Shown: positions 590-16,152 of the stretch, in pieces
Numbering within the stretch: the first letter of the stretch is position 1
Layout of the letters: every line of letters starts with the position of its first letter
DNA from: Rhodospirillales bacterium
GTDB taxonomy: Bacteria > Pseudomonadota > Alphaproteobacteria > Rhodospirillales_A > JACZKS01
Assembly (NCBI GenBank): GCA_018648445.1
Contig: JABGRG010000089.1
Location: 1-16,152 of the forward strand
Length of the DNA: 16,152 bases
Reading direction: 5' to 3'
Made by a program: the position numbers and the translations under genes
Notes under the pieces: generated by a model
Databases searched by the model: none
Told to the model about the DNA's origin: nothing
The model's input: only the letters and a program-made list of their open reading frames with translations

Positions 590-966
590 CCCTTGGGTTC
601 CGGTCGCAGACGCAGGGGGTCGGACAAAGCCATGTTCTGACCCCGGAAATACAGGTGATGGTCAGACTTGGAAATTCCCAACCCCTGTTTTTTTGCTTCG
701 ATGTGTACGTGGTAGAAGGCGTGGCCGGAGAAAGCAAAACGCCCCTCGGCGTCGGTTATTTCCTCGCCATGAAAGTTGATGGAGACAAGGCTTTTCTTGC
801 CCAGTTTCACGGTGGCGCCAGCGACGGGACGTCCCTGCATATCAACGACACGGCCGGAAAATTTTCCATCGTCGTTCAGAACCACATAAATGTTCCAAAG
901 GATCGAAACGATGGCGATGGTGCCAAACGTTATCGTGTAGCGGCTGCGCAATATGGACCACCACAT
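586..966 (-). CDS. small membrane-anchored protein with carboxypeptidase-regulatory-like beta domain
   Basis: This 126-residue protein has a short N-terminus with Arg7 and Arg9, one hydrophobic segment (about 11-30), then a soluble part predicted to face the periplasm. Residues about 34-85 carry the pattern SGRVVDMQGRPVAGATVKL followed by TDAEGRFAFSG and an alternating hydrophobic HVHIEA strand. That pattern is typical of carboxypeptidase-regulatory-like/transthyretin-fold domains. No catalytic motif is visible. An AGGG Shine-Dalgarno overlaps the end of the upstream permease gene, 7 bp away, and the stop overlaps the deacetylase start by 4 bp, so it is translationally embedded in the transporter operon. 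I infer an accessory role, such as a periplasmic sugar-binding or docking domain next to the ABC permeases. The fold assignment is moderate and the function unknown. Confidence 0.8.
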   Translation of the reverse strand: MWWSILRSRYTITFGTIAIVSILWNIYVVLNDDGKFSGRVVDMQGRPVAGATVKLGKKSLVSINFHGEEITDAEGRFAFSGHAFYHVHIEAKKQGLGISKSDHHLYFRGQNMALSDPLRLRPEPKG

Positions 967-973
967 AACCGGC

Positions 974-1786: not shown

Positions 1787-1789
1787 CGC

Positions 1790-2698
1790 CTAAGTCCCTT
1801 CATCCACGGCGCCCGCATCACCGCCGAATAGGCGGTTGGCGAGCCAGGCCAGCGTTACGAAAAACAGGAAATTCACCACCGTCATGGCGGCAGCGTAATC
1901 GAATTTGGAAAGGGTGAAAGCGGCCCTGTAGATGTAGGTGATCAACAGCTCGGTAACGTGACTGGGGCCCCCCTGGGTCATGACGTAGACCAGATCGAAA
2001 TTTGTAAACGAATTGATGATGCCGACCACGAAGCACAGGAAAATCGACGGCTTGAGCATGGGGAAGGTAATGCGGATGAAACGTTTCCAGGCCCCTGCTC
2101 CGTCGATGGCCGCCGCCTCGTAAAGGCTTTGCGGAATGTTTTGCAGGCCCGTTAGCAGGATGATCATGTAGAACCCCAGCACCTGCCAGATCGACGCCAC
2201 GATGACCGAGGGGAAGGCCAGGCTGAAACTCTCCAGGAAGGGAATGCCCTCGTCGATAATGCCCAGGCTCATCAGCACGTAATTGATGAGGCCCACCTTC
2301 TCGTTGAACAGCCATTGCCAGATGATGCCGACCGCCACGGTCATCACCGGATAAGATAAAAACACGATGGTGCGATAAACGCCGCGCCCGCGAATACGGG
2401 TATCGACCATTAAGGCGATGATCAGCGCGAGCCCGATGCCAATGGGCGCGCTGGCCATGAGGACGGACGTGTTCCACAGGCTTTGCCAGAACACGTCGTC
2501 GTAGATCAGCATTTCCTCGTAGTGATAGAGGCCCGCAAACTCGGTGGGCTTGAACGGATCCCAGAACTGGAACGACAACACGCCGTTCCAGATCAGGGGA
2601 ATTATCCGATATAGGGCGAAGATCGCCAGTGACGGCGCCAGGAAGAACCAAATGAGGATTAACTCACGGGTTCTCTTTTTTTTGATCAACGTGTTCAT
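1790..2698 (-). CDS. carbohydrate ABC transporter permease, MalF/UgpA-type (CUT1)
   Basis: Inner-membrane protein of 302 residues with a basic N-terminus (KKKRTR) and a first membrane segment from about residue 13. The EAA loop reads EAAAIDGA (194-201), followed by a Trp-Lys-Arg-Phe stretch and FPMLKPS. MTQGGP at 240-245 is the other hallmark of MalF/UgpA proteins. The length is that of UgpA-like subunits lacking the large periplasmic loop of E. coli MalF. The ATG at 2698 follows an AGGA-like ribosome site. It lies 30 bp downstream of the binding-protein gene and 3 bp upstream of the MalG-type gene, so the two permeases are almost certainly co-translated. It forms the channel heterodimer with the 974-1786 product. 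Confidence 0.94.
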   Translation of the reverse strand: MNTLIKKKRTRELILIWFFLAPSLAIFALYRIIPLIWNGVLSFQFWDPFKPTEFAGLYHYEEMLIYDDVFWQSLWNTSVLMASAPIGIGLALIIALMVDTRIRGRGVYRTIVFLSYPVMTVAVGIIWQWLFNEKVGLINYVLMSLGIIDEGIPFLESFSLAFPSVIVASIWQVLGFYMIILLTGLQNIPQSLYEAAAIDGAGAWKRFIRITFPMLKPSIFLCFVVGIINSFTNFDLVYVMTQGGPSHVTELLITYIYRAAFTLSKFDYAAAMTVVNFLFFVTLAWLANRLFGGDAGAVDEGT

Positions 2699-2728
2699 GT
2701 GTTCCTAGCACCGTCCCTGATGAATACC

Positions 2729-3982
2729 CTAGCGCCGGGAAAGAACCCGGTTGACCTTCTTTTCGGCGGCGTCGAGAGCTTCCTTGGCGCTCTTGCGGCC
2801 GAGAAGGGCGTTTTGCAGTTCCGGATAGAAGGCTTCCTTGACGGCGGCGTCCTTAGCCACCGGCCAGTTGCCCACCAGCTTGTCCAAGTGTTCTGTCTGG
2901 GTTTTCATGACCGAAACGGCGTCGGGGATGTTTTTCTCAAAGTAGGCCATGAGCTTTTTGTTGGCCACCTTGCTGCCGGTCAGCACGTTGAGCGACGAAC
3001 CCAGGTCATAGGCGCCACCGCCGCTGGTCGCCATCTTGGCAAATTCCCAGGCAATCTTCGGGTACTTGGTGGACTTGGAAATGAGCAAGGCATGGGAGTT
3101 GGGGGTCGACCAGTTGCCCGGCATCTGGGCCACGCCGACCGTGTCCTTGTTCATCCACGGACCTTTGGCCTTCATCCACATGAAGGCAGGCGAGTGGGCC
3201 TGCAACATGCCGATGGTGCCCGCCGCGAAGGCGTTGTTGGGTTTGACCCAGCGGCCTGTCCAGCTGATCTTGTTGATGGCTCCGCTCTTGGTGGCGGCGG
3301 CCAGTTTTTCGACGGCGGCCACGGCCGCGGGCGTGTTGAAGGCAGCCTTTTTCAGATCCGGCGTGAACATCTCAACGCCGTTCATGGCCATCAAGGACCA
3401 ATATAGCCAGTCGAAGTTCAACGTCATGAAGCCCGACTTTTCGCCACCGCTCAACTTTCCTGCATAAGCAAGAAGATCATCGAAGGTCTTGGGCGGCCCG
3501 GAAAGTCCGGCTTTCTTGAACATGGCCTGATTGTAGAAAAGCAAGGTTTTGGAGATGTAGAAGGGCACGCCGTAATTCTTGCCCTCGTAAACCCAGCTGC
3601 TCAGGAATTCCGGGTACAATTCGCTCGTATAGGAGGCCTGATCCGCCTTCAGGTACGGCGTCAGGTCCAGAAGTCCGCCCTTGGAGGCGTATTCCAGCCA
3701 CAAACCGCCTTGTACGTCGACGATGTCAGGAGCCGTACCAGCCACCACCTGTGTCTGATAATAGGTGCTCCATTCCGAGCCCTTCTTGTCCAGCCATTCG
3801 ATGGTAACGTCCGGGTATTTCGCTTTGAACTGCTTCATCCACTTCTCGGCTCCCGCCTTGAAGTGGGGGATATTCCAGGCAAGGAACGATATCTTTTTCT
3901 CGGCCTGGACCGGCGATGTTCCCAATACCGCGGCGACGGCAAAAGCGACAGCCGCAACGGTGGTCGTAATCGTGCTACGCAT
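2729..3982 (-). CDS. sugar ABC transporter substrate-binding protein (family 1)
   Basis: Periplasmic sugar-binding protein of 417 residues. I chose the ATG at 3982 rather than an in-frame ATG at 4015 for two reasons. An AGGAGGAAGACA ribosome site sits directly before it, and the protein then begins with a clean Sec signal peptide: MRSTITTT, an Ala/Val-rich core, and a likely cut after PVQA (about residue 27). The mature part has the family-1 pattern KISFLAWN near its start, a GTAPDIVDV segment, and a YGVPFYISKTLLFYN stretch, all typical of maltose/glycerol-phosphate-type binding proteins. It delivers substrate to the two permeases encoded next. Its position between the oxidoreductase and permease genes indicates one operon. 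Many aromatic residues would fit a carbohydrate ligand, but the ligand is not identifiable. Confidence 0.93.
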   Translation of the reverse strand: MRSTITTTVAAVAFAVAAVLGTSPVQAEKKISFLAWNIPHFKAGAEKWMKQFKAKYPDVTIEWLDKKGSEWSTYYQTQVVAGTAPDIVDVQGGLWLEYASKGGLLDLTPYLKADQASYTSELYPEFLSSWVYEGKNYGVPFYISKTLLFYNQAMFKKAGLSGPPKTFDDLLAYAGKLSGGEKSGFMTLNFDWLYWSLMAMNGVEMFTPDLKKAAFNTPAAVAAVEKLAAATKSGAINKISWTGRWVKPNNAFAAGTIGMLQAHSPAFMWMKAKGPWMNKDTVGVAQMPGNWSTPNSHALLISKSTKYPKIAWEFAKMATSGGGAYDLGSSLNVLTGSKVANKKLMAYFEKNIPDAVSVMKTQTEHLDKLVGNWPVAKDAAVKEAFYPELQNALLGRKSAKEALDAAEKKVNRVLSRR

Positions 3983-4036
3983 TGTCTTCCTCCTGCTTTT
4001 GTTGTCGTTTTCCAATAATTTCGGTCGATCAGGAGC

Positions 4037-5068
4037 CTAGAAGGCCAGTTGGACCTCCCTTCCCTCCGCCAGCGACCGCTCCGCTTCGAGACAGATGATG
4101 ATGCGCTTGCGTGCTTCCTCTCCAGAGACGATGGGCCGACGATTGCGGAACGCTTCGACGACCTTCACCAACTCTTCTTCCAGTTCAAACAGTTCGCCCG
4201 ATGGCGGCAACTCGAGCGTCTCGCATTTTTCCTCGCCGCCCTTAAGAACCTTCAATTCGAAAGTGGGGTGCCGGGTGCGGTCCATGGTTCCCGACCACCA
4301 GGTGCGAATAGCGCCCTCGCTGCCTACCAGTTCCATCACCTGATGGTGCTCGAAACCGGCCAAAGACTGGGTCACCATGGCGTACAACTGACCCGGCCAG
4401 CGAACCAGCGCCGTGAAATTGTCGTACATGTTGTGAGGCCCCGTTTGCTGACGATCCTTGGCGGAACCGGCAGCCAGCACGGAGACGGGATCGCCATGAT
4501 CCTCGAAATACCACATGAGGGAGTCAAAGAAATGCACCGGCTCTTCCAGCGTCCAAGAACCCACCTTGTCGCCGTCGAAACGCCAACCACCGGAACCGGG
4601 CCGATAGGGGTGACGGAACAGGCTGACAAGAGCATACATGGGCTCGCCGATGGCGCCTTCTTCAACCAGGGTTTTTACGCGCCCCCACTGGGTGGACAGC
4701 CGGAACTCGTGACCGATGGTAAGGACACGGTCATTGCGCCGGGCTGCCTCGATAAGCCGATCGCACTCCTCCACGCTCAGCGCCATGGGCTTTTCCAGCA
4801 GCATATCCTTGCCCGCTTCCAGGGCGGCCACCCCCACTTCCGCATGCAGATGGTTGGGGACCACCACGTCCACCGCATCAATGTCGGCGCGCGCCAATAC
4901 CTCTTGGTATCCACGGTACACGGCAATGCCGGGGAAAGCCTCTTTCGCGGCAGCCTCGGAGGCATCGTCACCAACGGCGATGGCCGCCAGTTCGGCACCG
5001 GGCGCCTTGATGATGGCGTTGGCATGATGCTGGCCCCAAAGTCCGTACCCGATCAGTCCAAAACGCAT
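4037..5068 (-). CDS. Gfo/Idh/MocA-family NAD(P)-dependent oxidoreductase
   Basis: Cytoplasmic sugar dehydrogenase-type protein of 343 residues. The N-terminal Rossmann fold has the dinucleotide-binding glycines G7, G9 and G12 in GYGLWG. The family's second signature, LEKPMAL, starts at residue 91, with the usual catalytic-region lysine in EKP. The C-terminal half carries GSWTLEEPVHFFDSLMW, a typical active-site stretch in which histidine and aspartate contribute to catalysis. Members oxidise or reduce hydroxyls on inositols, sugars and amino sugars, sometimes as part of redox-assisted glycoside cleavage. GGGGAGG precedes the ATG at 5068. It sits between the ATPase (39 bp gap) and binding-protein genes (54 bp gap), so it probably acts first on the imported sugar. 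Exact substrate is unknown. Confidence 0.92.
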   Translation of the reverse strand: MRFGLIGYGLWGQHHANAIIKAPGAELAAIAVGDDASEAAAKEAFPGIAVYRGYQEVLARADIDAVDVVVPNHLHAEVGVAALEAGKDMLLEKPMALSVEECDRLIEAARRNDRVLTIGHEFRLSTQWGRVKTLVEEGAIGEPMYALVSLFRHPYRPGSGGWRFDGDKVGSWTLEEPVHFFDSLMWYFEDHGDPVSVLAAGSAKDRQQTGPHNMYDNFTALVRWPGQLYAMVTQSLAGFEHHQVMELVGSEGAIRTWWSGTMDRTRHPTFELKVLKGGEEKCETLELPPSGELFELEEELVKVVEAFRNRRPIVSGEEARKRIIICLEAERSLAEGREVQLAF

Positions 5069-5107
5069 GCCCTAACCTCCCCTCGTTTATTATCGTCCCG
5101 ATTTATG

Positions 5108-6193
<1,086 letters not shown>

Positions 6194-6310
6194 TACTCAG
6201 CTTCCCCCAATTTCGTTTTTTTCCCCACCACCACTGAAAAGCCATTTTGCATCGAATGCAACCCCTATCCATGAGTGCCGTCAAAGAAAAATGGGGCTAT
6301 TCGGTCTCGG
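6194..6310 (-). promoter_or_regulatory. upstream region of the ABC operon with candidate promoter
   Basis: This is the only sizeable gap between the dehydratase operon (ending at 6311) and the ABC operon (starting at 6193). On the minus strand a TTGACG element (6284-6279) resembles a -35 box (5 of 6). Seventeen bases downstream is TTGCAT (6261-6256), a poor -10 (3 of 6) that is also the first arm of a palindrome. GGGGGA near 6210-6204 acts as the ribosome site. I see no convincing hairpin plus T-tract terminator for the upstream operon, so read-through is possible. The promoter call is weak and rests on position plus motif resemblance. Confidence 0.35.
6247..6261. promoter_or_regulatory. palindromic candidate operator TTGCAT-CGA-ATGCAA
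   Basis: A perfect inverted repeat with 6-bp arms around a 3-bp CGA centre. It lies 53 bp upstream of the ATPase start and would overlap the -10 of the weak promoter proposed there. Size and symmetry fit the operator of a dimeric helix-turn-helix repressor such as a LacI- or GntR-family sugar regulator. No such regulator is encoded in the window. I did not find another copy of the same arms in the other two promoter gaps. The palindrome is seen directly; operator function is inference. Confidence 0.4.
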
Positions 6311-6613
6311 TTATCTTTTCCCAGCACGGCCGGAGAGATTGTGGACGTGAACGTGGGTTCCCGCAGCGATGTCCCGTGTGGCGTCTCCAATGATTTCGCC
6401 ATATTTTCGGATTGTCGAGCCCGACGGGATGGATGCCAAAGCGAACTTGTGGCACCGCCGGATATCCTCCCCCACCTTTACCTCCACGGGGCCTGCGGGC
6501 GTTCCCACGCGGGCCAATGCTCCCGCAGCCAAAGGGCGCAGGGCCGTCGCCACGCCATCGTCTGCATGCAGCACCAGGGCGTCGACGGGTTCGCGGGTTG
6601 ATGTTTTATTCAT
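6311..6613 (-). CDS. UxaA-family small subunit (SAF domain), altronate dehydratase/SuyA-like
   Basis: A 100-residue protein matching the N-terminal SAF domain of UxaA/GarD enzymes. The C-terminal half follows the family pattern: HKFALASIPSG (55-65), IRKYGEIIG (68-76), ATRDIAAG (78-85), then HVHVHN (87-92). In altronate and galactarate dehydratases this domain is fused to or associated with the large catalytic part. In sulfolactate sulfo-lyase it is the separate SuyA subunit. The ATG at 6613 overlaps the large-subunit stop by 4 bp, so the two halves are surely made together. The predicted reaction is beta-elimination of water, or of sulfite if SuyAB-like, from a 2-hydroxy acid to give a 2-keto acid. 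Family is secure; substrate is not. Confidence 0.9.
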   Translation of the reverse strand: MNKTSTREPVDALVLHADDGVATALRPLAAGALARVGTPAGPVEVKVGEDIRRCHKFALASIPSGSTIRKYGEIIGDATRDIAAGTHVHVHNLSGRAGKR

Positions 6614-7773
6614 AACGCTGGCCCCATTCGACTTACAACTTCCTCGCCTTCATCCAAAATCTCGCCAAAGGTCATGGTTCCGGACGCCACCTCCATGGCC
6701 AGATCGAGAAGATCGGGCACGGCATCGGCCAAATTCCGCCGCCCTTCGAAGACTTGGGTAGCCTCGAAATCGATCTGCGAGTTCAGACGGTCCACCGAAT
6801 CGGGATTTGCCGATATCTTGATGGTCGGCGCAATCGAATTGACGAAACTGTTGCCCGCGCCGGTCGTGAAAAGAACCAGTTGCGCCCCTGCCGCGACCAT
6901 TCCCGTCATCGACTCCGGAGCATATGCCGGGGCGTCCATAAACCAAAGGCCGGGACCGGGTGGCGCTTCGGCCATTCCGATCACACCTTGAATGGGGCGC
7001 GATCCCCCTTTTGCTATGGCCCCCAACGCTTTCTCTTCCAGTGTGCTCAGACCGGCTTCGATATTGGTCGGTCCGGGGTTGTCGCCCAACAGATCGATCC
7101 CGGCGGCAATCGCCGCGTCTTCTCGCCGCCGGACCGCTTCGGATATGGCCTCGGCGACCGATGGATCGGCGGCGCGGGCCTGAAGCAGATGAACGGTCCC
7201 GAACCATTCCATGGTTTCGCCAATGACGGCCCGCCCGCCGCTGTCGACCACCGCATCTACGACACCGCCGACCAGCGGATTGGAGACCAGACCCGAGCTG
7301 GGGTCCGACCGGCCGCACTCACCGGCAACAAACAACGCCGACAGGGGTGCGGGACGCCGCCTTTGGCGCGACAAATCGCGCGCCAAACCGGCGGCGGCGC
7401 GTAATCCCCGGTCGGTCAGCGTCAGGGCGTCATGGCCGCATTCGTCCAACGTCAGCGCCACCACTGGTTTACCCGTTTCAGATATGGTTTGCGCAAATTC
7501 GGCCACCTGCGGCGGATGGCCGCCAATCAGCAAAACCGCACCCACATTGGGATTGCGCCCCAACCCGATGAGGCTGCGACGATGGAGGTCATAATCCTCA
7601 CCGACAATGCCGCTGCCAAAGGGCATGGCAAAGACGCGCGCACCCGGTATGGAGCGCCCGATCCGTCTCGCCGTCGGCCCGGTCAATCCGGTGATCGACA
7701 GGATCAAAAGATGATTTCGCACACCGATGGAACCATCGGGCCGTTCATATCCTTGAAAGCTTCGTTCGCTCAT
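6610..7773 (-). CDS. UxaA-family large subunit, altronate/galactarate dehydratase or SuyB-like
   Basis: A 387-residue protein matching the catalytic C-terminal region of UxaA/GarD enzymes. It begins with GYERPDGSIGVRN (8-20), then has FGSGIVGED (52-60), LDECGHD (109-115), ECGRSDPSSGLVSNP (152-166) and IGETMEWFG (184-192). The block at 152-166 corresponds to the CGGSDxxSGxxANP signature of the family, with Arg replacing the second Gly. Such enzymes use a divalent metal, often iron, to dehydrate altronate- or galactarate-type acids. The two-polypeptide layout also matches SuyAB sulfolactate sulfo-lyase. The start overlaps the stop of the UxuA-like gene as ATGA, and the stop overlaps the small-subunit start. 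Context with UxuA-like and enolase-superfamily enzymes favours an aldonate or aldarate dehydratase. Confidence 0.9.
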   Translation of the reverse strand: MSERSFQGYERPDGSIGVRNHLLILSITGLTGPTARRIGRSIPGARVFAMPFGSGIVGEDYDLHRRSLIGLGRNPNVGAVLLIGGHPPQVAEFAQTISETGKPVVALTLDECGHDALTLTDRGLRAAAGLARDLSRQRRRPAPLSALFVAGECGRSDPSSGLVSNPLVGGVVDAVVDSGGRAVIGETMEWFGTVHLLQARAADPSVAEAISEAVRRREDAAIAAGIDLLGDNPGPTNIEAGLSTLEEKALGAIAKGGSRPIQGVIGMAEAPPGPGLWFMDAPAYAPESMTGMVAAGAQLVLFTTGAGNSFVNSIAPTIKISANPDSVDRLNSQIDFEATQVFEGRRNLADAVPDLLDLAMEVASGTMTFGEILDEGEEVVSRMGPAL

Positions 7774-8810
7774 TTATCCGTCTCCGTCACCGCTCTAATT
7801 AGCCCGGCGATATAGCCTGTGGCGTAGGCCCGGCTGCGGTGTCCCCACACGGTATCGTTCACCATGCGTGGAACGTGATCGTCGATCAGGAACCCGTCGA
7901 ACTTCACCCGAACCAACTCACGCAACACGGCCACCAGATCGACGTCGCCTTCATCAAGGAAGCATTCGCGAAACTTGGGCACCGTTCCCTTGATGTTACG
8001 GAAATGAATGAAATCGATTTTGCCGCGTTCACCGAATTCACGTAACGCCGCCATCATCGCGTCGACCCCCGATTCCGACCAGGTGCCCATACAGAAATCG
8101 AGGCTGTGGTTGGGGCTGTCACCGATCTCCAGCGCGCGGCGCACCCCTTCGATATTTCTAAAAATACGCGCGACGCCGCCCAGGCTGGGTACCGGCGGAT
8201 CATCGGGATGAAGCGCCAGCCTGACACCGGCCTCTTCGGCAACCGGCAAAACCGCGTCGATGAAGTAGCTGTAGTTCGCCCACATATCGTCGTCGGTATA
8301 TTCGCGCCCGAACATGGGCGGGGCGTCTTCCACCAACGCCAAGTCGAAAGACGAACAACGGGCCTGACCGCGAATCTCGGTGGTTTTGGACGTGCGCCAA
8401 ACGCGCGTCGGCATCCAGTGGTATCCGAGGATGGGTATTCCGGCCCGTCCGATGGCGCGAATGGTTTCCCTGTAATTGTCAATCTGTTCGTCCCGTCCCG
8501 GCAGGCCCAGCATGGCCTTGTCGTAAAACCAGATCGGCACGTTCTCCAGCGCCTCGAGCCGCAGCCCGTAATCCTCAATGCGGCGGCGCTCCTGAACCAG
8601 TTCGAAGGTATCCCAGCGGCTGGTCGACCCAGACCCTCCATCAGCCACCCAATAGGTCCCGCCCAGCGCCCCCGATCCAAAAGACGCCTCGCCCGTAAAT
8701 GGCGGGGTGTTCAACACGATCCCCTCGACCCCCAACTGTTTGGCGAAAAGCAGATCTTCCTCGGTAGCGCCTCTCAGGCTGCCGATTGCGACACGCATGT
8801 TCTGTTTCAT
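7770..8810 (-). CDS. mannonate dehydratase-like TIM-barrel enzyme (UxuA family)
   Basis: A 346-residue cytoplasmic protein. I prefer the ATG at 8810, preceded by GGGGGAAGCC, over an in-frame ATG at 8828. Family blocks are clear: GYHWMPTRVWRT (129-140), LHPDDPP (H201), LDFCMGTW (C240), IHFRN (H269), and FLIDDH (D310/D311). These match the His-Cys-His-Asp metal site described for UxuA, which dehydrates D-mannonate to 2-keto-3-deoxygluconate. The protein is shorter than E. coli UxuA (394), and the spacing suggests a trimmed subfamily, so a related aldonate is possible. It is the first gene of a three-gene operon with the UxaA-type subunits, and shares a 77-bp divergent promoter region with the plus-strand enolase-superfamily gene. 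Confidence 0.9.
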   Translation of the reverse strand: MKQNMRVAIGSLRGATEEDLLFAKQLGVEGIVLNTPPFTGEASFGSGALGGTYWVADGGSGSTSRWDTFELVQERRRIEDYGLRLEALENVPIWFYDKAMLGLPGRDEQIDNYRETIRAIGRAGIPILGYHWMPTRVWRTSKTTEIRGQARCSSFDLALVEDAPPMFGREYTDDDMWANYSYFIDAVLPVAEEAGVRLALHPDDPPVPSLGGVARIFRNIEGVRRALEIGDSPNHSLDFCMGTWSESGVDAMMAALREFGERGKIDFIHFRNIKGTVPKFRECFLDEGDVDLVAVLRELVRVKFDGFLIDDHVPRMVNDTVWGHRSRAYATGYIAGLIRAVTETDK

Positions 8811-8887
8811 GGCTTCCCCCGTACGCATTTCGTAGCGATTGACCTCGGCGCACCATCCGTTCCATCATGACCTACGGGGAGGACGCC
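8811..8887. promoter_or_regulatory. divergent promoter region, UxuA-like operon and enolase-superfamily gene
   Basis: A 77-bp gap between two divergent starts, so it must hold promoters for both directions unless one is read from elsewhere. On the plus strand TTGACC (8839-8844, 5 of 6 to -35) is followed after 18 bases by CATCAT (8863-8868, 4 of 6 to -10), which would leave a very short leader before the GGGGAGGA ribosome site. A short inverted repeat TACG-CATTT-CGTA spans 8822-8834. Nothing stronger is visible on the minus strand. The individual boxes are weak; the regional assignment follows from gene layout. Confidence 0.4.
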
Positions 8888-9985
8888 ATGAGAATTAAAA
8901 AGATCACACCGCAAGTCCTGACGTGGGAGCTTGACGGCGGTTTTCGCAATCCCATCATGACTTGGACCCACAAGACCGTGGTCCTGGTGTTCGTGGTATG
9001 CGACGACGGAACCGTGGGCGTCGGCGAATGCTGGGCGTCGGGGGCCGAACCGAGCGCTCTGGTGGCAACGCTGGAAGACGACGTATCGCCTCGCCTGATT
9101 GGCAAGGACCCCCTGGCCATCGGCGCAAACTGGTCCGAGATCGACGGCCTGTCCCAAATCAGCGCGCGTCAGGGCATTTTGCGGGCGGCTTTGGCCGGTA
9201 TTGATATCGCGTTGTGGGACATTTTGGGCAAGGCAGCAGGTCTGCCGGTTTGGCGGTTGCTGGGCGGATTCTCGGATCGGGTATTTCCGTACGCCAGCGC
9301 CGGTTTGTATGCCCCCGGAAAGACCCCGGCGGATCAGGGAGCCGAAATGGCCGGGTATGTCGCCAAGGGGTTCACGGGCGTGAAGATGAAGGTCGGCGGC
9401 GCATCTTTCGACGAAGATGTGGCTCGTGTCGCCGCCGTTCGCGACGCCGTGGGACCGGACGTTCGCCTGATGGTCGACGCCTTGGGAATCATGACGCCGA
9501 CACAGGCGCTTCGCTTTGCGAACGCCGTTGCGCCGCATGACGTCTATTGGTTCGAGCAACCCGTTGCGCCTGAAGACATTCGCGGACTGGCGGCGGTCAA
9601 TCAACGCGGACCAATTCCCGTATCGGCCAATGAAAACGCCGTCGACCGGGGCCACTTCCGCACCCTCATTACCGAAGACGCCGCCCGCTTTATCCAGTTC
9701 GATGTTCTGGTTGTCGGCGGCATCACCGAAGGACGCCGTATCGCCAATCTGGCCGAAGCCTGGCATCTTCCCGTCACCCTTCATCATGCGGCCTCGGCGG
9801 TTTGTATGGCAGCCAACCTGCATCTGGCGGCGGGTTTGCCGAATTGCGATTCCATCGAGTACCACATGCTGCACCAATGGTTGTTTGACCGTGTGCCCGA
9901 TAGCGATTGGGCGTTGTCCGATGGGCACATCCGGCTTGGGGACAAGCCGGGTCTCGGCCTCGATATAACGCCCGACAGCCTCTAG
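8888..9985 (+). CDS. mandelate racemase-type enolase-superfamily enzyme (probable acid-sugar dehydratase), KxK type
   Basis: A 365-residue enzyme. The ATG at 8888 has a strong GGGGAGGA site before it; an ATG at 8867 is in frame but poorly placed. It has the complete mandelate-racemase-group active site: K166 and K168 in GVKMKVG, metal ligands D197, E223 (WFEQP) and E249 (ANEN), the D272-H299 dyad (QFDVLVVGG and TLHHAAS), and a further acid at E324 in SIEYH. Positions of these residues run two ahead of those in mandelate racemase itself, so the barrel is intact. Such enzymes abstract the proton alpha to a carboxylate and either racemise or dehydrate; the sugar-acid context favours dehydration. 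It is transcribed alone, against the flanking genes, and its stop overlaps the stop of the opposing gene at CTAG. Confidence 0.92.
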   Translation: MRIKKITPQVLTWELDGGFRNPIMTWTHKTVVLVFVVCDDGTVGVGECWASGAEPSALVATLEDDVSPRLIGKDPLAIGANWSEIDGLSQISARQGILRAALAGIDIALWDILGKAAGLPVWRLLGGFSDRVFPYASAGLYAPGKTPADQGAEMAGYVAKGFTGVKMKVGGASFDEDVARVAAVRDAVGPDVRLMVDALGIMTPTQALRFANAVAPHDVYWFEQPVAPEDIRGLAAVNQRGPIPVSANENAVDRGHFRTLITEDAARFIQFDVLVVGGITEGRRIANLAEAWHLPVTLHHAASAVCMAANLHLAAGLPNCDSIEYHMLHQWLFDRVPDSDWALSDGHIRLGDKPGLGLDITPDSL

Positions 9986-11109
9986 TCGTCTACCCGCCAT
10001 TTGGCCAAGGCGTCTTCGTTTAGCTCAATTCCCAATCCGGGGCCTTCCGGCAACGTCAGAAAACCCTCACGAATGGTTGGTGTGATGGTTAGCGCGTGAT
10101 CGAAGGACGGGTTGGGATTGGCATCCATTTCCAGCCAATCGGCACCTTCGACCGCCGCCATGACGTTGGCGCTGACGTAGAGACCGACGGCACCGCCGAA
10201 ATTGTGCAGGCACAGCCTCCGTCCCTGCCCGATGGCGTCGCGGGCGAAGACCATTCCATCCGACACGCCACCGCATTTCGTGATATCGGGCTGGACCACT
10301 CCGGGGTTCCAGCGCGCAGTGACCTCAGCCAACTCTTGCCGACCATATGAGTTTTCGCCGAGGGCCAGAGGCACGTCGATGCGGTAGGGGAAATCGTCAT
10401 AGGCGGCGATATCATCCACCGGGAAAGGTTCTTCCAGCCAATCCAGACGCGCTGCCTCGATATCGTCTTTCAACGCCAGCAGGCTTGCCGGTGTCAGGGT
10501 CTGATTGGCGTCGGCCATGATGGGTTCGTCACCCGCCGCTTTGCGCGCCGCGGCCAGCGTCGCCGGGTCCTTGTCGGGACCGAAACTGATGCGAACCTTG
10601 TAGCGACAATGACCCAGCGCGCGGGCTTCCTCAATCTGACCGGCGGTATCGTCGCAGCTTAAACCGCTGGCATATACCGGATAGCGGTTGGCGGTTTTCT
10701 TGCCACTCAGAAGATCGCGCAATGGCAGGCCCCTGCCCCGCGCGAAGGCATCCCAAAGGGCGGCATCAGTGCCGGCGATGACATGCTGAACCGGCCCCTT
10801 GGCCCCCCACTGCAAGGCCAGCAGGCGCAATTTCTCCTGCATCAACGCATACAGGCGGGCCGGATCATCGAGGGTTTCGCCGACAAGCAAGGGACGCACC
10901 ACCTGCTCGAACAACGCCACCTTTTCCGAGCATCCCCAAAACGGGAAATTCGCCCATATCTCGCCCAGTCCCCGCGCGCCATCACTGGTTTCGGCAACCA
11001 CGATCAGGTTGAGGCGTGCGTCCAAACGGCCGAACGGGGCGACGATGGGGCGCGGCAGGGGGAAACGCAGCAGTACGGTACGCAAATCGGTCAGAACCGG
11101 AGCATTCAT
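9982..11109 (-). CDS. mandelate racemase-type enolase-superfamily enzyme, KxR type
   Basis: A second, clearly different member of the superfamily, 375 residues. The first base motif is K171-V-R173 (YKVRIS), so the second lysine of KxK is replaced by arginine. Metal ligands are D200 (MADANQ), E226 (WLEEP) and E252 (GENSYG). The D275-H302 dyad (QPDITKCGG and LHNFGG) and a distal E327 (WLEMD) are present. It is predicted to act on a 2-hydroxy acid or acid sugar by enolisation, with dehydration most likely. It is the last gene of the sulfatase operon: its ATG follows the LarA-like stop after one base (TGA-T-ATG), so translation is coupled. Substrate and stereochemistry probably differ from the 8888-9985 product. 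Confidence 0.92.
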   Translation of the reverse strand: MNAPVLTDLRTVLLRFPLPRPIVAPFGRLDARLNLIVVAETSDGARGLGEIWANFPFWGCSEKVALFEQVVRPLLVGETLDDPARLYALMQEKLRLLALQWGAKGPVQHVIAGTDAALWDAFARGRGLPLRDLLSGKKTANRYPVYASGLSCDDTAGQIEEARALGHCRYKVRISFGPDKDPATLAAARKAAGDEPIMADANQTLTPASLLALKDDIEAARLDWLEEPFPVDDIAAYDDFPYRIDVPLALGENSYGRQELAEVTARWNPGVVQPDITKCGGVSDGMVFARDAIGQGRRLCLHNFGGAVGLYVSANVMAAVEGADWLEMDANPNPSFDHALTITPTIREGFLTLPEGPGLGIELNEDALAKWRVDD

Positions 11110-11110
11110 A

Positions 11111-12418
11111 TCAACACCGTGTCAAAAGGACGCCGTCGTCCGAGAATTCCATGGGCGCGAGATCGGACAGCACCTCGACCCCAGGTGTTCCCGCGATGTC
11201 TTCAAACAACGAATTTGAAACCAGAATCTCGTTCAGGTGCATGGTCGAACGGATTATGCAAAAACGGCTTTGGGCGGGATCGAGGCACCAGCTGGTAAGG
11301 GCGAGGGCCCGGGCAACGTCGCGTTCATCCGGCAGCACGATAGGTATGCGCGCTTTCTCGAGGATCGTCGCAACGATTGAGTTCATGTACATGGCCTGAA
11401 GGTCGAGCGAATTTGCCAGCGCACGCGGGATATAGTCGGCCATCCCGACGCCCATGCCGTTGCCGTGGGATTCCGGCGTGCAGCCCAAAACCCCTATCTT
11501 ATGGATGAACGGTTTTGGCGGGTTGGGAACTCCTCGAATATCGGTTCGCCCCGTGACCGCGTAATCCATGCCCGCGCCACTGATTTCCTTGCCAAGAACT
11601 TCAACGATCATGGCGTCGATCTGCGCGAACGGAAGGCGCGCCAACAAGGACTTGGCCAGCTTCAAAAGCCTCTCGTCGGCGGCGTGAAAGCTTTCTGGCT
11701 CCACCGCCTCGACCGTCACGATGTCGTGGTGGGCGTTTTCGACCACGGCAAGGCCACAGACCATTGGCGCATTATCCAGCAACACACGTCCGATCTCGGG
11801 CAGCACTTCACCCAGTCCGATTGGAGGCCCCATGCGATGGACGTAATTTGCCCCACGGTCCTTGCCCAGACCGACGGCGACCATTTTTACCAAACCGCTC
11901 TCAATGGGACGGTCAAAACTGGTGTGAGACTTGACACGGCTGATCGTCACGATGCCATCGGCGGCTGCGGCATTGGCGTCCAGCATGCACGGTATGCCTT
12001 GAGACGTGGTTCCAAATTCCACCGTTTCCATCGTCGCACGAACCGGCGCGCCGACGGTGGCCTCGGATACGCCAAGGCGCTCCAGCACGGCCGCCTGCCC
12101 TTCTGCCGTTGCCCCGCCGTGGCTACCCATGGCCGGAACGATGAATGGATTATGCCCGCGGCCTTTAAGATATGCGACGACACCGGCAACCAGCCCAGGC
12201 AGGTTCGTCAGGCCCCTGCTGCCGACGCCAACCGCAATCCGTGCTCCCGAAGGCAAGGCATTGAGCTTAATTGCGCTCGATAGCGCCTGCTCGATAGCAC
12301 TTTCCAAGTTATCGACCGGCGTTCCTTTGGGTTGCGGCAGGCGAACCCGCATCACGGTCGGAAGTTGGACGTCTGCGAGGACGGGGATGCGAACGGCGGG
12401 AAAAGTTGGGCTGGACAC
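11111..12418 (-). CDS. LarA-like nickel-pincer-cofactor isomerase (DUF2088 family)
   Basis: A 435-residue protein starting with GTG at 12418, chosen because AAGGA lies 8 bases upstream, immediately after the sulfatase stop. It has the LarA/DUF2088 layout: GSHGG (99-102, H100), RVKSHTSF (161-168, H165), IESGLVKM (K178), and NYVHRMG (H194). In lactate racemase LarA, a lysine carries the nickel-pincer nucleotide, a histidine 16 residues later binds nickel, and two more histidines act as bases. K178 and H194 have that same spacing. The family racemises or epimerises 2-hydroxy acids, including reported D-gluconate 2-epimerisation. The operon suggests an acid-sugar C2 epimerase. The cofactor makers LarB, LarC and LarE are not in the window. 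Family confidence is high; the substrate is inferred. Confidence 0.88.
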   Translation of the reverse strand: MSSPTFPAVRIPVLADVQLPTVMRVRLPQPKGTPVDNLESAIEQALSSAIKLNALPSGARIAVGVGSRGLTNLPGLVAGVVAYLKGRGHNPFIVPAMGSHGGATAEGQAAVLERLGVSEATVGAPVRATMETVEFGTTSQGIPCMLDANAAAADGIVTISRVKSHTSFDRPIESGLVKMVAVGLGKDRGANYVHRMGPPIGLGEVLPEIGRVLLDNAPMVCGLAVVENAHHDIVTVEAVEPESFHAADERLLKLAKSLLARLPFAQIDAMIVEVLGKEISGAGMDYAVTGRTDIRGVPNPPKPFIHKIGVLGCTPESHGNGMGVGMADYIPRALANSLDLQAMYMNSIVATILEKARIPIVLPDERDVARALALTSWCLDPAQSRFCIIRSTMHLNEILVSNSLFEDIAGTPGVEVLSDLAPMEFSDDGVLLTRC

Positions 12419-12429
12419 GACGTTTATCC

Positions 12430-13950
12430 TTATTCGGGAGACGGCAAGCCGTACCGGCGATAGGCCTCGGGCGGGGCCTCGTTTTCGGCCATCATTTCGA
12501 CCATGCGTGCAATCAGGCGCGCCTCCACCTCGGGATCGTCAAGCGGCGTCGTTTGTCCCGGATCGGTTTGCAGGTCATACAGCACGTTCACGCAATCGGC
12601 GATGCCGCCACCCTGCACCGGCGGGCGTTCGGCGTCCTTGTGGCCCGGCAGTTTGAGGATCGGCGCACCCTTCGAGAACTTGAACTCGGTGGTCAGTTCG
12701 GCGCCCTCGAATTCATGGATTTTGAACAGCGAGCCCTGGTGCGCGGGCATCAGGGTGTATTCGTTGATTTCCTGGTTCTCGACGTCGACAGGATAACGGA
12801 AATAGGTGTAGCGCCCGTCGGTGATATCGATAGGCCCGCCAAACATGCCATAGAGTGCGGCATCGCGGATCGGTTGATCGCTTTCCAGCACGGGCCGGAT
12901 GGATCGGCCTTCCACATCGGAGGGCACATCCGTTTCGCCGTGGAAATCCAGCAATGTCGGCATCAGGTCGATGGTTTGGGTCAGGCTGGAGCGCCGCTCC
13001 CCGCCCTTGTCGGCATGGTCCGGGTGATAGACCATCAGCGGAATATGAGCGACCTCGTCATAGTACGGCATACGGTTTTTGCCCCACCAGTCGTGTTCCG
13101 ACAGCATAAATCCGTGGTCCGTGGTCAGCACCAAGGCCGTATCTTTCCACATGTCGTTGGCGTCGAAGAAATCGAGAATTTGCCCGAAATATTCGTCGCA
13201 CATGGTCATCATGGCGGCGTAGTTGGCGCGAATTTCGGCGATTTGTTCCGGCGTTTCCTCGACCCGCTTGTAGCGCGGCCAATCAAGGATCGGCCCTTGA
13301 TAATCGGTCGGGTACATGTCGCGGAAACGCTGGGGCGCGATGAAGGGCTCGTGGGGGCTGAAGGTTTCGATCTGCAGCATCCAGTCGTCGGCTTTTTTGT
13401 TGCGCTCGAGAAACTCAAGCCCGTGCTTGAAGCACTGCACGGCCGGGAAGTCTTCTTCCTCGCGAATGAACTGGCGGTTGGCGATGTGCCGCCAGCGCTT
13501 GGCGCGGTCCGTCTCACCGTGGGCGAAGTGATGATAGGTCTCGCGCCATTCATCCAGCGGCCAATCGACCAGACCTTTCCACGGGTCCCATTCCTGCCCG
13601 CGCATGTTCTCCCACGATGAATTCCGGGTGTGGTAGCTCCATCCGCCATCCTCGAAATAATGGTAGTGGTCCGTGATCATATGCGAATAGACGTCGCGGC
13701 GTTTCAGAATTTCAGTCGCCGAGTCATCATAGGGCTCCATCGGGCCCCAACTGCGATGCAGGAAATTCAGCCGCCCCGTATGCAATTCACGGCGCGCCGG
13801 CATGCAGGGCAGACTGCCCGTGTAATGATTGTCGAAAGTCACGGCCCGCTCGGAAAAGCGGGTGAAATTCGGCGTTTTTGCCCATTTTCCACCGTAGCAT
13901 TCCATGGCTCGGCGATTGAGTGAGTCCATCAAAACGAAGACAGTCCGCAT
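12430..13950 (-). CDS. type I sulfatase, predicted cytoplasmic
   Basis: A 506-residue alkaline-phosphatase-fold sulfatase. The ATG at 13950 is preceded by AGGAGGG at ideal spacing; an upstream in-frame ATG at 14007 has no such site. The formylglycine motif C-x-P-x-R is intact as C49-M-P-A-R53 in SLPCMPARRELHTGR. D9 and N12 near the N-terminus, H200 (SPHEP), D278-H279 (TTDHGF) and K291 supply the expected metal and sulfate pocket. The protein begins directly with the first core strand and has no signal peptide, so it should act in the cytoplasm on an imported sulfated molecule. C49 would need conversion by a formylglycine-generating enzyme, and none is encoded here. First gene of the operon with the LarA-like and KxR enolase-superfamily genes. 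Phosphonate ester hydrolysis is a less likely alternative. Confidence 0.93.
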   Translation of the reverse strand: MRTVFVLMDSLNRRAMECYGGKWAKTPNFTRFSERAVTFDNHYTGSLPCMPARRELHTGRLNFLHRSWGPMEPYDDSATEILKRRDVYSHMITDHYHYFEDGGWSYHTRNSSWENMRGQEWDPWKGLVDWPLDEWRETYHHFAHGETDRAKRWRHIANRQFIREEEDFPAVQCFKHGLEFLERNKKADDWMLQIETFSPHEPFIAPQRFRDMYPTDYQGPILDWPRYKRVEETPEQIAEIRANYAAMMTMCDEYFGQILDFFDANDMWKDTALVLTTDHGFMLSEHDWWGKNRMPYYDEVAHIPLMVYHPDHADKGGERRSSLTQTIDLMPTLLDFHGETDVPSDVEGRSIRPVLESDQPIRDAALYGMFGGPIDITDGRYTYFRYPVDVENQEINEYTLMPAHQGSLFKIHEFEGAELTTEFKFSKGAPILKLPGHKDAERPPVQGGGIADCVNVLYDLQTDPGQTTPLDDPEVEARLIARMVEMMAENEAPPEAYRRYGLPSPE

Positions 13951-13991
13951 TGGAAGCCCTCCTGTTGCGCGTTGATCGCGCCTTATTCCCG

Positions 13992-14007
13992 TTGGCATGA
14001 TCGCCAA
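13992..14007. promoter_or_regulatory. palindrome TTGGC-N6-GCCAA, candidate LysR-type operator
   Basis: A perfect inverted repeat with 5-bp arms and a 6-bp spacer (ATGATC). The inner T and A are 12 bases apart, close to but not identical with the classical T-N11-A box of LysR regulators. The left arm overlaps the candidate -35 of the LysR gene, and the spacer coincides with the candidate -10 of the sulfatase operon. A protein bound here could repress its own gene and control the operon. The repeat is seen; binding by the neighbouring LysR protein is inferred. Confidence 0.42.
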
Positions 14008-14020
14008 GAAGAATTAAACT
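13992..14020 (+). promoter_or_regulatory. candidate sigma-70 promoter of the LysR gene
   Basis: TTGGCA (13992-13997) matches the -35 consensus at 5 of 6 positions. After a 17-base spacer, TAAACT (14015-14020) matches the -10 at 4 of 6. Transcription would start near 14027 and leave a leader of about 40 bases before the ATG at 14067. The -35 overlaps the palindrome, which fits autoregulation. Prediction by motif only. Confidence 0.35.
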
Positions 14021-14025
14021 TACAA
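13997..14025 (-). promoter_or_regulatory. candidate sigma-70 promoter of the sulfatase operon
   Basis: On the minus strand TTGTAA (14025-14020) is a 4-of-6 match to -35. After 17 bases comes GATCAT (14002-13997), a 4-of-6 match to -10. The -10 falls within the palindrome spacer. A promoter this weak would fit a need for activation by the LysR regulator. Motif-based and tentative. Confidence 0.28.
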
Positions 14026-14066
14026 ATACCCATATGGCTTACATCCATAACGATTCGGAATGGACC

Positions 14067-14996
14067 ATGGAGCTCCAGTCGCTCAAATACTTCCTCGCCG
14101 TGGTTGACGCTGGCAGCTTCAGCGCCGCCGCCCGTTCCCAAAACATCACCCAACCGGCCTTGACCAAGAGGGTTCGTCTGCTTGAGGAGGAATTGGGGGT
14201 TCGTCTGTTCGACCGGTTGCCGCGCGGCGTTTCGACAACTTCCTATGGCGAAGCCCTGGCCGGCCACGCCCGCTTGATACGAAGCGAGGTCGAAAACGCC
14301 AGCGCCGATATTGATTCCCTTCGCGGCGCGCGGGCCGGTCATGTTCGGATCGGTGCGGGGCCATCCTGGGGCAGCGACCTCCTGCCCCGCGCGATCGAAC
14401 GGGTGCATCGTGATCGGCCGGAAATCCAGTTCTTCGTGCGGCAGCTTCCCGAGGACCGCCTGTTTCCGGCTCTGTGCGACGGCGAACTCGACATCGTGGT
14501 CGGCGTTGTCCCGCCGCCTGCCGGGTTCGAAAACCTCGAGAGCACCACATTGATTTCGGACCAAACCAATGTCGTAGCGCATACCGACCATCCTTTGACT
14601 CGAAAATCGAGGGTCCGTCTTGCCGATTTGCTGGAGTATCCCTGGGTGCTTCCCAGTCACTTGACGATGATCCGCAACGTTTTCGATCAACTGTTTCACA
14701 TCGGTGGCCTTAATCCGCCGAAGCCGGTGCTTGAGAGCGATCCCCTGGTTATCCGGTTGGCGCTTCCGCGCTATGGGAATTTCCTTACCTTTACGGCCTC
14801 GCAAAACTTGGTGGAGTTCGGAATCGGTTCCCTCGTGTCGTTGAATGTCCCGGAATGTTCTTGGCAGCGAAACGCGGGCATTTCGGTTCGCTCGTCGGGT
14901 CATCTTTCACCGGCCGCGCGCCGACTAATCACCGAATTGGAGCAAGTTTGCAGCGAAACGCCACATAGCGCGGTGAATACGGGCTCTCGCACATAA
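14067..14996 (+). CDS. LysR-family transcriptional regulator
   Basis: A 309-residue DNA-binding regulator. The ATG at 14067 gives the family's usual opening MELQSLKYFLAVVDAGSF; an ATG at 14034 is in frame but would add 11 atypical residues. The winged helix-turn-helix covers about residues 1-60, with SAAARSQNITQPALTKRV, then EEELGVRLFDR and the conserved Thr-x-x-Gly turn (TTSYGEAL). The rest is a periplasmic-binding-protein-like effector domain, beginning near 90 with VRIGAGPSWG. Divergence from the sulfatase operon suggests that it controls that operon in response to a pathway acid. Its stop is only 5 bp from the convergent TctA-type gene's stop, so it could also relate to that transporter. 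Confidence 0.94.
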   Translation: MELQSLKYFLAVVDAGSFSAAARSQNITQPALTKRVRLLEEELGVRLFDRLPRGVSTTSYGEALAGHARLIRSEVENASADIDSLRGARAGHVRIGAGPSWGSDLLPRAIERVHRDRPEIQFFVRQLPEDRLFPALCDGELDIVVGVVPPPAGFENLESTTLISDQTNVVAHTDHPLTRKSRVRLADLLEYPWVLPSHLTMIRNVFDQLFHIGGLNPPKPVLESDPLVIRLALPRYGNFLTFTASQNLVEFGIGSLVSLNVPECSWQRNAGISVRSSGHLSPAARRLITELEQVCSETPHSAVNTGSRT

Positions 14997-15001
14997 GATA
15001 T

Positions 15002-16152
15002 CTATTTGCCCTCGCGCTTTCGATTCCGCCAATCCTGGTAGAACGGCCAAAACAGAAGAACGACGGAGATGATGACGAAGATCAGCGGCAATGGCCGGGT
15101 GACGACGGGCGAAAAATCCCCGTCCGTCATCATCAAACCGGAGCGCAGCTTCGATTCCGCGATGGGCGCCAACACGAAACCAATGACGAATGGCCCCAGC
15201 GGCACTTTCGAGCGCTCAAGGAAATAACCGAAAACACCGAATCCCAGCATTACCCAGACATCGAAAAAAAGGTTGTTCAGTGCGAACGAACCAATGACGC
15301 AGAACACCAGAATCGGCGGCAGCACGTAGGCACGCGGTGTGAACATCAACTGGGCGATCTTGCCGACCGAGCTGGTCATGATGCCGTACATCATGATGTT
15401 GGCCAGCAAACAGGCCGAAATCATGGCGTAGACGATTTCGGGGTTGTTGAGGAACAGCGTCGGTCCCGGCTGGATGGCGTGGATCATCAGTGCGCCGATC
15501 AAAATAGCGTCGATGACGCTGCCGGGAATGCCCATGGCAATGAGCGGAATAAGCGCCCCGCCGATTGTGGCGTTGTTGGCTGCCTCGGAAGCGACGATGC
15601 CTTCCTCGCTGCCGGTGCCGAATTTCTCGGGCGTCTTCGACATATTCTTGGCCGTCGTATAGGCGACGATGGACCCGATATTGGCTCCGATTCCGGGCAG
15701 GATGCCGATCCAGGTGCCGATCACCGAGGATCGCAACATGTTCCAGGCCTGGTTTTTCCAGTCCTTGAACGACATCAGAATGCCCTTGGTCGAGAATTTG
15801 GTGCGCTCAATGGTGCGGTCAATATCGACGATGTCGGCGATCAACTGGCTGACGGCGAACACACCGATCAGAACCGGCAACAGGCCAAGGCCGCCATTAA
15901 GATATAAAACGTCCCAGGTCAGGCGCGGGAAACCACCTGCCGCGGGATCAACGCCGGGCATGGCGACGAGCATACCAAGCGCGCCAGACAGCAGCCCCTT
16001 CACCATCGAGCCCTGGCTGACGGATGCGATCAAGACCATCGCCATCACCACCAGCGTGAAATACTCAAACGGCCCAAACCGTGTTGCCAGATCCGACAGC
16101 GGTTCAGACACCAAAACAAGAAATATCCAGGAGATAATCCCACCGATAAACG
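15002..16152 (-). CDS. TctA-type permease of the tripartite tricarboxylate transporter family, N-terminus beyond window
   Basis: The reading frame stays open to the right edge, giving 383 codons of a family that is usually about 500 residues, so roughly the first 115 are missing. A TTG at 16114 is an internal Leu codon, not a start. TctA hallmarks are present: IGILPGIGANIGSIVAY, then EEGIVASEAANNATIGG, then AMGIPGSVIDAILIGAL, with many hydrophobic helices and a basic C-terminal tail (RNRKREGK). This large membrane subunit works with a small TctB and a periplasmic TctC binding protein to import carboxylates. Those partners are not in the window; they may lie beyond the right edge. It converges on the LysR gene with 5 bp between stops. 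A sugar acid or sulfonated acid substrate is plausible but unproven. Confidence 0.92.
   Translation of the reverse strand, partial: FIGGIISWIFLVLVSEPLSDLATRFGPFEYFTLVVMAMVLIASVSQGSMVKGLLSGALGMLVAMPGVDPAAGGFPRLTWDVLYLNGGLGLLPVLIGVFAVSQLIADIVDIDRTIERTKFSTKGILMSFKDWKNQAWNMLRSSVIGTWIGILPGIGANIGSIVAYTTAKNMSKTPEKFGTGSEEGIVASEAANNATIGGALIPLIAMGIPGSVIDAILIGALMIHAIQPGPTLFLNNPEIVYAMISACLLANIMMYGIMTSSVGKIAQLMFTPRAYVLPPILVFCVIGSFALNNLFFDVWVMLGFGVFGYFLERSKVPLGPFVIGFVLAPIAESKLRSGLMMTDGDFSPVVTRPLPLIFVIISVVLLFWPFYQDWRNRKREGK

What the first reader, a model, noticed from the sequence alone, without database searches (positions are those of the whole stretch)
9982..13950. Cytoplasmic sulfatase, nickel-pincer isomerase and enolase-superfamily enzyme in one coupled operon
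The three genes are separated by 11 bp and 1 bp and face a divergent LysR gene. Seen: an intact C-x-P-x-R sulfatase without a signal peptide, a LarA-like protein with H100/H165/K178/H194, and a KxR enolase-superfamily enzyme. Inference: an intracellular route in which a sulfated 2-hydroxy or sugar acid is desulfated, changed at C2 and dehydrated. I know of no described pathway that uses exactly this trio.
Basis: partly seen in the sequence, partly recalled or inferred. Interest (0 to 1): 0.72.

Follow-up and report, generated by a model that had tools for sequence, protein, structure and literature searches.

The report
Predicted operon for sulfated sugar acids
A set of genes shared by several alphaproteobacteria appears to import a sulfate-bearing sugar acid, cut the sulfate off inside the cell, flip one carbon with a nickel enzyme and dehydrate the product, a predicted carbon and sulfur route not found in the papers searched.

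Summary
In detail: three co-directional genes (sulfatase 13950-12430, LarA-like 12418-11111, enolase-superfamily MR2 11109-9982; gaps 11 and 1 bp) with a divergent LysR. The trio recurs and is the core of a larger cluster. It follows TctA in L001 (Rhodospirillales), L005, L006 and L175; L004, cut by its contig, shows the trio too. In L005 and L175 most genes overlap by 4 bp, in the order TctCBA-sulfatase-LarA-sulfatase-MR2-SAF/GDAH dehydratase-LarC-LarE-LarB; L006 carries a sulfatase maturase (FGE). Maturation genes of both special enzymes thus travel with them. Trio loci form two non-sister clades in all three gene trees, so the linkage arose twice or was lost repeatedly. Against: only 2 of 33 close sulfatase places have LarA nearby, and 8 of 13 close LarA loci have no sulfatase within 5 kb. 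Most likely it is a cytoplasmic pathway for sulfated aldonic or aldaric acids: TTT import, desulfation, C2 epimerisation, dehydration. All these steps are inferred from families and context; substrate and order are untested. L175 lies in Pararhizobium sp. IMCC3301, where it could be tested. Side finding: a family-less, glycoside-hydrolase-like barrel protein accompanies six such sulfatase clusters.

The parts
12430..13950 (-). S1-type sulfatase, 506 aa, CMPAR (Cys49), no leader; first gene of the trio
   Evidence: C-x-P-A-R in 117 of 120 homologs
11111..12418 (-). LarA-like nickel-pincer isomerase, NCBIfam group 22, 435 aa
9982..11109 (-). MR2: enolase-superfamily enzyme, MR type (K171xR173, D275-H302 dyad), probable sugar-acid dehydratase
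   Evidence: dehydratase function inferred
14034..14996 (+). LysR-type regulator divergent from the trio; no LysR gene between TctA and sulfatase in L001, L005, L006 and L175
13951..14033 (.). 83-bp divergent region between sulfatase and LysR (presumed control region)
   Evidence: function inferred
15002..16152 (-). TctA, membrane subunit of a tripartite tricarboxylate transporter (cut by window end)
   Evidence: PF01970, 333 bits; orthologs of 97, 68, 72, 67, 71 and 91% near LarA in L001, L005, L006, L175, L013 and L172
8867..9985 (+). MR1: second enolase-superfamily enzyme, convergent with MR2 (4-bp overlap)
   Evidence: 50% relative beside a sulfatase in L190
7770..8828 (-). UxuA-like (mannonate dehydratase family) protein
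   Evidence: PF03786, 196 bits; below NCBIfam cut-offs; 94% in L001
6610..7773 (-). large subunit of an altronate/galactarate-type dehydratase (GDAH)
   Evidence: PF20629 and PF04295; GarD 6u7l, 107 bits
6311..6613 (-). small SAF-domain subunit of the same dehydratase
   Evidence: PF08666

Best explanation
The trio is the core of a cytoplasmic catabolic operon for a sulfated sugar acid, most likely a sulfated aldonic or aldaric acid. A TctCBA (TTT) importer brings the anion in. A cytoplasmic formylglycine sulfatase, with further sulfatases in relatives, releases sulfate. The group-22 LarA enzyme, with its nickel-pincer cofactor, inverts the free C2 hydroxyl. MR2 abstracts the C2 proton and removes water to give a 3-deoxy-2-keto acid; the SAF/GDAH dehydratase, MR1 and the UxuA-like enzyme handle other diastereomers or branches. 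LysR senses the acid. Shown here: gene content, intact motifs, LarA fold, recurrent linkage, and maturation genes in sister operons. Inferred: substrate, reaction order and every chemical step.
For: Linkage: a sulfatase lies within 5 kb of LarA in 5 of 13 loci with LarA at 48% identity or more, against 1 of 67 below that. LarA orthologs at E<=1e-100 were found in 8 of 788 genome searches; 6 of the 8 have a sulfatase within 5 kb and 4 the complete trio. Co-transcription: 4-bp overlaps from TctA through MR2 in L005, and from sulfatase through LarC in L175. Maturation: LarC, LarE and LarB in L005 and L175; FGE in L006 and a short FGE piece in L005. In G001, nearest to the window, LarC and two radical-SAM sulfatase maturases over cut-off. 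Two non-sister trio clades in the LarA, sulfatase and MR trees. LarA and MR2 homologs share contig lengths 9 times, 8 within the top 24 of both lists; offset control mean 1.0, maximum 4. Sugar-acid context of LarA relatives: IlvD/Edd dehydratase (L081; L002) and a gluconolactonase-family protein (L172). TTT systems for galactarate/glucarate and for sulfolactate are listed in PMC5812351 (passages).
Against: Only 2 of 33 close sulfatase places (E<=1e-120) have LarA in the fetched stretch. 8 of 13 close LarA loci have no sulfatase within 5 kb; G535 and G515 carry LarA with none in 20 kb. G455 has all three orthologs on three different contigs. MR2 of the window and of L005, L006 and L175 are only 36-37% identical, so they need not share a substrate. 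LarA-sulfatase and MR2-sulfatase contig matches (3 and 1) are little above control (means 0.6 and 0.5, maxima 2). A profile alignment with a canonical LarA failed; the Asp of the LarA D-x-x-R motif is not seen and the second His is shifted by three residues. G004 showed no LarC.
Confidence: 0.6

Rival explanations
1. Same pathway, different order: LarA and MR2 act on the acid while it is still sulfated, and sulfatases act last or at several points.
For: Gene order gives no reaction order; several sulfatases per cluster (L006 has four within 10.5 kb) could act at different stages.
Against: In L001, L005, L006 and L175 a sulfatase comes first after TctA, which suggests but does not prove first action.
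Confidence: 0.17
2. The 'sulfatase' is a phosphate- or phosphonate-ester hydrolase of the same superfamily, and the substrate is a phosphorylated sugar acid or a phosphodiester.
For: The best NCBIfam hit is PehA, a phosphoric/sulfuric ester hydrolase; PDB matches include a phosphonate monoester hydrolase whose C-x-P-x-R aligns with the motif here.
Against: PehA scores 150 bits against cut-off 900; the companions SulfB and Sulf3 are nearest choline-sulfatase (302 and 286 bits, also below its cut-off of 433); the best PDB match is an N-acetylglucosamine-6-sulfatase.
Confidence: 0.1
3. Unrelated neighbours: the sulfatase scavenges sulfur, while LarA and MR2 degrade an unsulfated sugar acid.
For: The sulfatase family sits mostly elsewhere (31 of 33 places without LarA); LarA also occurs without it (L002, L003, L007-L012).
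Against: Two separate assemblies with the same order TctA-sulfatase-LarA-MR2, with or without further sulfatases between, and 4-bp overlaps; MR2 relatives beside sulfatases even without LarA (L123, L124, L126, L139, L190-L192).
Confidence: 0.1
4. MR2 is a cycloisomerase or epimerase (lactone or anhydro-sugar acid), not a dehydratase.
For: PDB matches include 4ggb (127 bits; recalled as galactarolactone cycloisomerase, the entry says uncharacterized) and 3,6-anhydro-galactonate cycloisomerase 5xd7 (91 bits); some homologs are named galactarolactone cycloisomerase by a source.
Against: All are distant; the closest structure, 3ddm (193 bits), has only a putative name; SAF/GDAH and UxuA-like enzymes beside it point to dehydration chemistry.
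Confidence: 0.2
5. A sulfonate route: SAF/GDAH is a sulfolactate sulfo-lyase (SuyAB-like) and LarA a sulfolactate racemase.
For: SuyAB has the same SAF plus GDAH split (recalled); a TTT system imports sulfolactate (PMC5812351); known sulfolactate inversion uses two dehydrogenases (title of Denger and Cook 2010, in the reference list seen).
Against: Sulfatases do not act on C-S bonds; MR enzymes and UxuA have no role there; the only PDB match at E<=0.001 is GarD.
Confidence: 0.03

Closest known systems
LarA superfamily D-gluconate/D-mannonate 2-epimerases (GntE) and other LarA groups (PMC7583248, PMC11770544; abstract and passages seen)
   Same: NPN isomerase fold; C2 inversion of sugar acids; sugar-acid gene context
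   Different: NCBIfam group 22; no activity for it in the passages seen (whether NCBIfam uses the same numbering was not checked); coupled to sulfatases; too distant for PDB sequence hits
Non-phosphorylative sugar-acid catabolism with enolase-superfamily dehydratases (e.g. SAR202 fucose/rhamnose routes, PMC10444878; passages seen)
   Same: MR-family enzymes; 18 proteins of the arylsulfatase COG also in that genome
   Different: No LarA or TTT-sulfatase operon in the passages seen
TTT (TctCBA) uptake systems for galactarate/glucarate and sulfolactate (PMC5812351, passages seen)
   Same: Importer type and anionic hydroxy-acid cargo
   Different: Cargo here unknown; linked to sulfatases
Altronate/galactarate dehydratases (UxaA/GarD)
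   Same: SAF plus GDAH domains
   Different: Split into two short genes; far below the galactarate dehydratase cut-off (147 of 731 bits)

Membership tests
Formylglycine sulfatase (S1) | Sulfatase domain PF00884 above gathering score | tested here: met
   116 bits, cut-off 25
Formylglycine sulfatase (S1) | C/S-x-P/A-x-R modification motif | tested here: met
   CMPAR at 49-53; C-x-P-A-R in 117 of 120 homologs
Formylglycine sulfatase (S1) | A maturase in the genome (FGE or radical-SAM) | tested here: inconclusive
   No genome held for the window. Relatives: radical-SAM maturase over cut-off in 3 of 6 (G001, G455, G727); PF03781 in 5 of 5, though G001's copy looks secreted
Formylglycine sulfatase (S1) | Hydrolysis of a sulfate ester | not testable with these tools
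   needs assay
LarA (NPN isomerase) superfamily | LarA fold | tested here: met
LarA (NPN isomerase) superfamily | NPN-linking Lys and Ni-binding His | tested here: met
   K178 and H194 invariant in 36, spaced 16 like K184-H200 of LarA (numbers from PMC7583248)
LarA (NPN isomerase) superfamily | Two catalytic His (H108, H174) | tested here: inconclusive
   H100 and H165 invariant, but H165 lies 13, not 10, residues before the Lys; profile alignment failed
LarA (NPN isomerase) superfamily | Asp and Arg of the D-x-x-R motif (D72, R75) | tested here: inconclusive
   R68 invariant; the Asp not seen in the GSRG motif (by eye)
LarA (NPN isomerase) superfamily | NCBIfam group 22 cut-off | tested here: met
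   455 bits, cut-off 400
LarA (NPN isomerase) superfamily | LarB, LarC, LarE available | tested here: inconclusive
   In operon in L005 and L175; LarC in 4 of 5 relatives; window genome not held
Enolase superfamily, MR type | Three metal ligands, Lys base in KxR/K, His-Asp dyad | tested here: met
Enolase superfamily, named dehydratase | Equivalog cut-off of a named dehydratase | tested here: not met
   best two 95 bits each, against 650 and 500
UxuA mannonate dehydratase (window 7770-8828) | NCBIfam cut-off | tested here: not met
   161 against 191, and 118 against 200

The most novel reading that the evidence does not exclude
A self-sufficient operon type for polysulfated sugar-acid glycosides: TTT import of the intact sulfated compound, cytoplasmic cleavage by a new glycoside-hydrolase-like barrel family (unk459), several cytoplasmic sulfatases, C2 inversion by a nickel enzyme, and dehydration, with maturation genes of formylglycine and nickel-pincer enzymes carried along. 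It would have assembled at least twice in Alphaproteobacteria.
Probability: 0.25. Interest if true: 0.78.

Novelty: new variant of a known kind. Interest (0 to 1): 0.6.

Why it matters
Sulfated sugars are a large and slowly degraded part of marine organic matter, and the better-known routes desulfate them outside the cytoplasm (both recalled). An importer that takes in the still-sulfated acid and a nickel isomerase that corrects its stereochemistry would add a new step to carbon and sulfur cycling, give LarA group 22 a testable substrate class, and offer operons in which two unusual enzyme-maturation systems travel with their clients.

Tried and rejected
Window genome search: none held, so maturases were checked in relatives only. 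Sequence search of LarA against PDB found no LarA as single sequence or as profile; the fold comparison did. Profile alignment of LarA with a canonical paralog failed, so residue equivalence rests on invariance and spacing. Sulfolactate (SuyAB) route considered and put last. Literature (open-licence PubMed Central only): searches; in their listings and in the passages opened I saw no sulfatase-LarA-enolase operon. Searches returned no paper; one search returned one review (listing and start of abstract seen). The acesulfame sulfatase (PMC10413263, passages) is a metallo-beta-lactamase type with an ABC importer: not this system. Promoter and LysR-site analysis was not done.
Full report
What is there. 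The window holds a minus-strand run sulfatase (13950-12430), LarA-like isomerase (12418-11111) and MR2 (11109-9982), with gaps of 11 and 1 bp, and a divergent LysR gene (14034-14996, +) 83 bp from the sulfatase start. Motifs are intact: CMPAR in the sulfatase, without a hydrophobic leader; H100, H165, K178 and H194 in LarA, invariant in 36 sequences, 55% identity or more to the query; K171xR173, D200/E226/E252 and D275-H302 in MR2. Position 173 varies (R 81, K 33, Q 11, gap 1 of 126), so KxR is not a family signature.

The block is larger than the trio. DNA of the window aligns with L001, a Rhodospirillales MAG, over 6294-9976, 9992-13953 and 15029-16152 at 82-91%. This block holds SAF and GDAH (a two-subunit altronate/galactarate-type dehydratase), a UxuA-like protein, MR1, the trio and TctA. 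The ABC importer and Gfo/Idh genes at 974-6193 lie outside it. In L001 TctA and the sulfatase are 5 bp apart; in the window LysR lies between them.

Conservation. A sulfatase is encoded within 5 kb of LarA in 5 of the 13 loci with LarA at 48% identity or more and in 1 of the other 67; an MR enzyme in 4 of 13 and 4 of 67. Some contigs are short, so neighbours may be missed. Searches of 297, 292 and 199 genomes of three orders found close LarA (E<=1e-100; only the best 5-8 candidates per genome scored) in 2, 1 and 5. Of these 8, the trio is complete in G001, G002, G003 and G727; G005 (contig cut) and G455 have a different sulfatase within 5 kb; G535 and G515 have none in 20 kb by six sulfatase queries. 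G727 is Pararhizobium sp. IMCC3301: protein P0302, so named, is 100% identical there, and contig lengths agree. L004, from a further genome, shows sulfatase end, LarA, a second sulfatase and MR2 start on a 4.3-kb contig.

Operon anatomy in relatives. L005 reads TctC-TctB-TctA-sulfatase-LarA-sulfatase-MR2-SAF-GDAH-LarC-LarE-LarB, then a short FGE piece, a third MR enzyme and unk459. L175 has the same order through LarB, a third MR enzyme and unk459, without the FGE piece. L006 has three further sulfatases and a full FGE after GDAH; its LarC lies elsewhere in the genome. TctB is named by position and length, not by a family scan. Neighbouring genes overlap by 4 bp from TctA through MR2 in L005 and from sulfatase through LarC in L175, the sign of translational coupling. 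LarE scores 248 bits (cut-off 150) and LarB 241 (cut-off 175), LarC 258 and FGE 244. So cofactor genes of LarA and a maturase of sulfatases sit with their clients. In G001, G455 and G727 a radical-SAM sulfatase maturase is present above cut-off (not in G002, G003, G005); PF03781 proteins are present in G001-G005, the G001 copy apparently secreted.

Trees. In maximum-likelihood trees the window and L001 form one clade and L004, L005, L006 and L175 another, not sisters, for the sulfatase (2 changes forced by supported branches; shuffled mean 5.8), LarA and MR2. In the MR tree the label also covered MR1 of the window and L001, hence 3 changes. In the LarA tree the test counts only rows in named groups and is uninformative as a statistic; there the separation rests on L172 being sister to the window clade (100/99) and on a fork of 87/91. 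The linkage therefore arose twice or was lost several times. G455 carries the sister of each of the three window proteins on three different contigs.

Limits on the association. The sulfatase family is common in other contexts: it is found in 10 of 385 and 9 of 199 genomes (E<=1e-120; best 3-7 candidates per genome scored), 33 places in all, and LarA was in the stretch at 2. Of the other 31, 21 have a TctA or ABC-permease match, and TRAP-type proteins were seen at L118, L123 and L139. MR2 relatives occur with sulfatases but without LarA: L123, L124, L126 and L139, and L190, L191 and L192 (with TctC, TctA, SulfB and unk459). LarA relatives occur without sulfatase but with IlvD/Edd dehydratase (L081; L002). 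The common denominator is sugar-acid dehydration, with sulfatase and LarA as modules.

Mechanism. LarA enzymes invert C2 of 2-hydroxy acids, including D-gluconate/D-mannonate (PMC7583248 and PMC11770544, abstract and passages). MR enzymes with Lys and His-Asp bases remove the C2 proton of a sugar acid of given configuration (established for the superfamily; recalled). A C2 epimerase before such a dehydratase makes chemical sense when the imported acid has the wrong C2 configuration. TTT importers carry galactarate/glucarate and sulfolactate (PMC5812351, passages). Hence the commitment to a sulfated aldonic or aldaric acid. Uronic acids in ring form would not expose the alpha-hydroxyl that LarA needs (inference).

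Noticed in passing
L001:2220-3599 (-); L005:19518-20921; L175:268-1650; L190:1122-2474; L191:8894-10336; L192:11855-13297: A conserved protein of about 450-480 aa without a Pfam family beside cytoplasmic sulfatases and Tct genes; predicted glycoside-hydrolase-like barrel closest to PgaB.
   Followed up: partly
window 14034-14996: The LysR gene lies between TctA and the sulfatase, which are 5 bp apart in L001: a lineage-specific insertion into, or loss from, the operon.
   Followed up: no
window 2-589 (-): YdjC-like protein (PF04794, 165 bits), cut by the window start, near the ABC importer genes.
   Followed up: no
L173:10915-12216 and L174:7942-9243: A second LarA-type gene (Lar_N plus LarA_C in L173; L174 copy by resemblance) beside the group-22 gene in divergent orientation: two nickel-pincer isomerase genes side by side.
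   Followed up: no
G727 (Pararhizobium sp. IMCC3301): Eight matches to this sulfatase family (query P0302, E<=1e-60) in one genome.
   Followed up: no
L084 (Sinorhizobium meliloti pSmeSM11a), 946-14827: cysD, cysN and a sulfotransferase gene lie a few kb from a LysR-sulfatase-ABC importer set: making and removing a sulfate ester may be coupled.
   Followed up: no
L178:4290-7445 (+): Cas9-like protein (HNH_4, RuvC_III) in the Rhodospirillales MAG G001.
   Followed up: no
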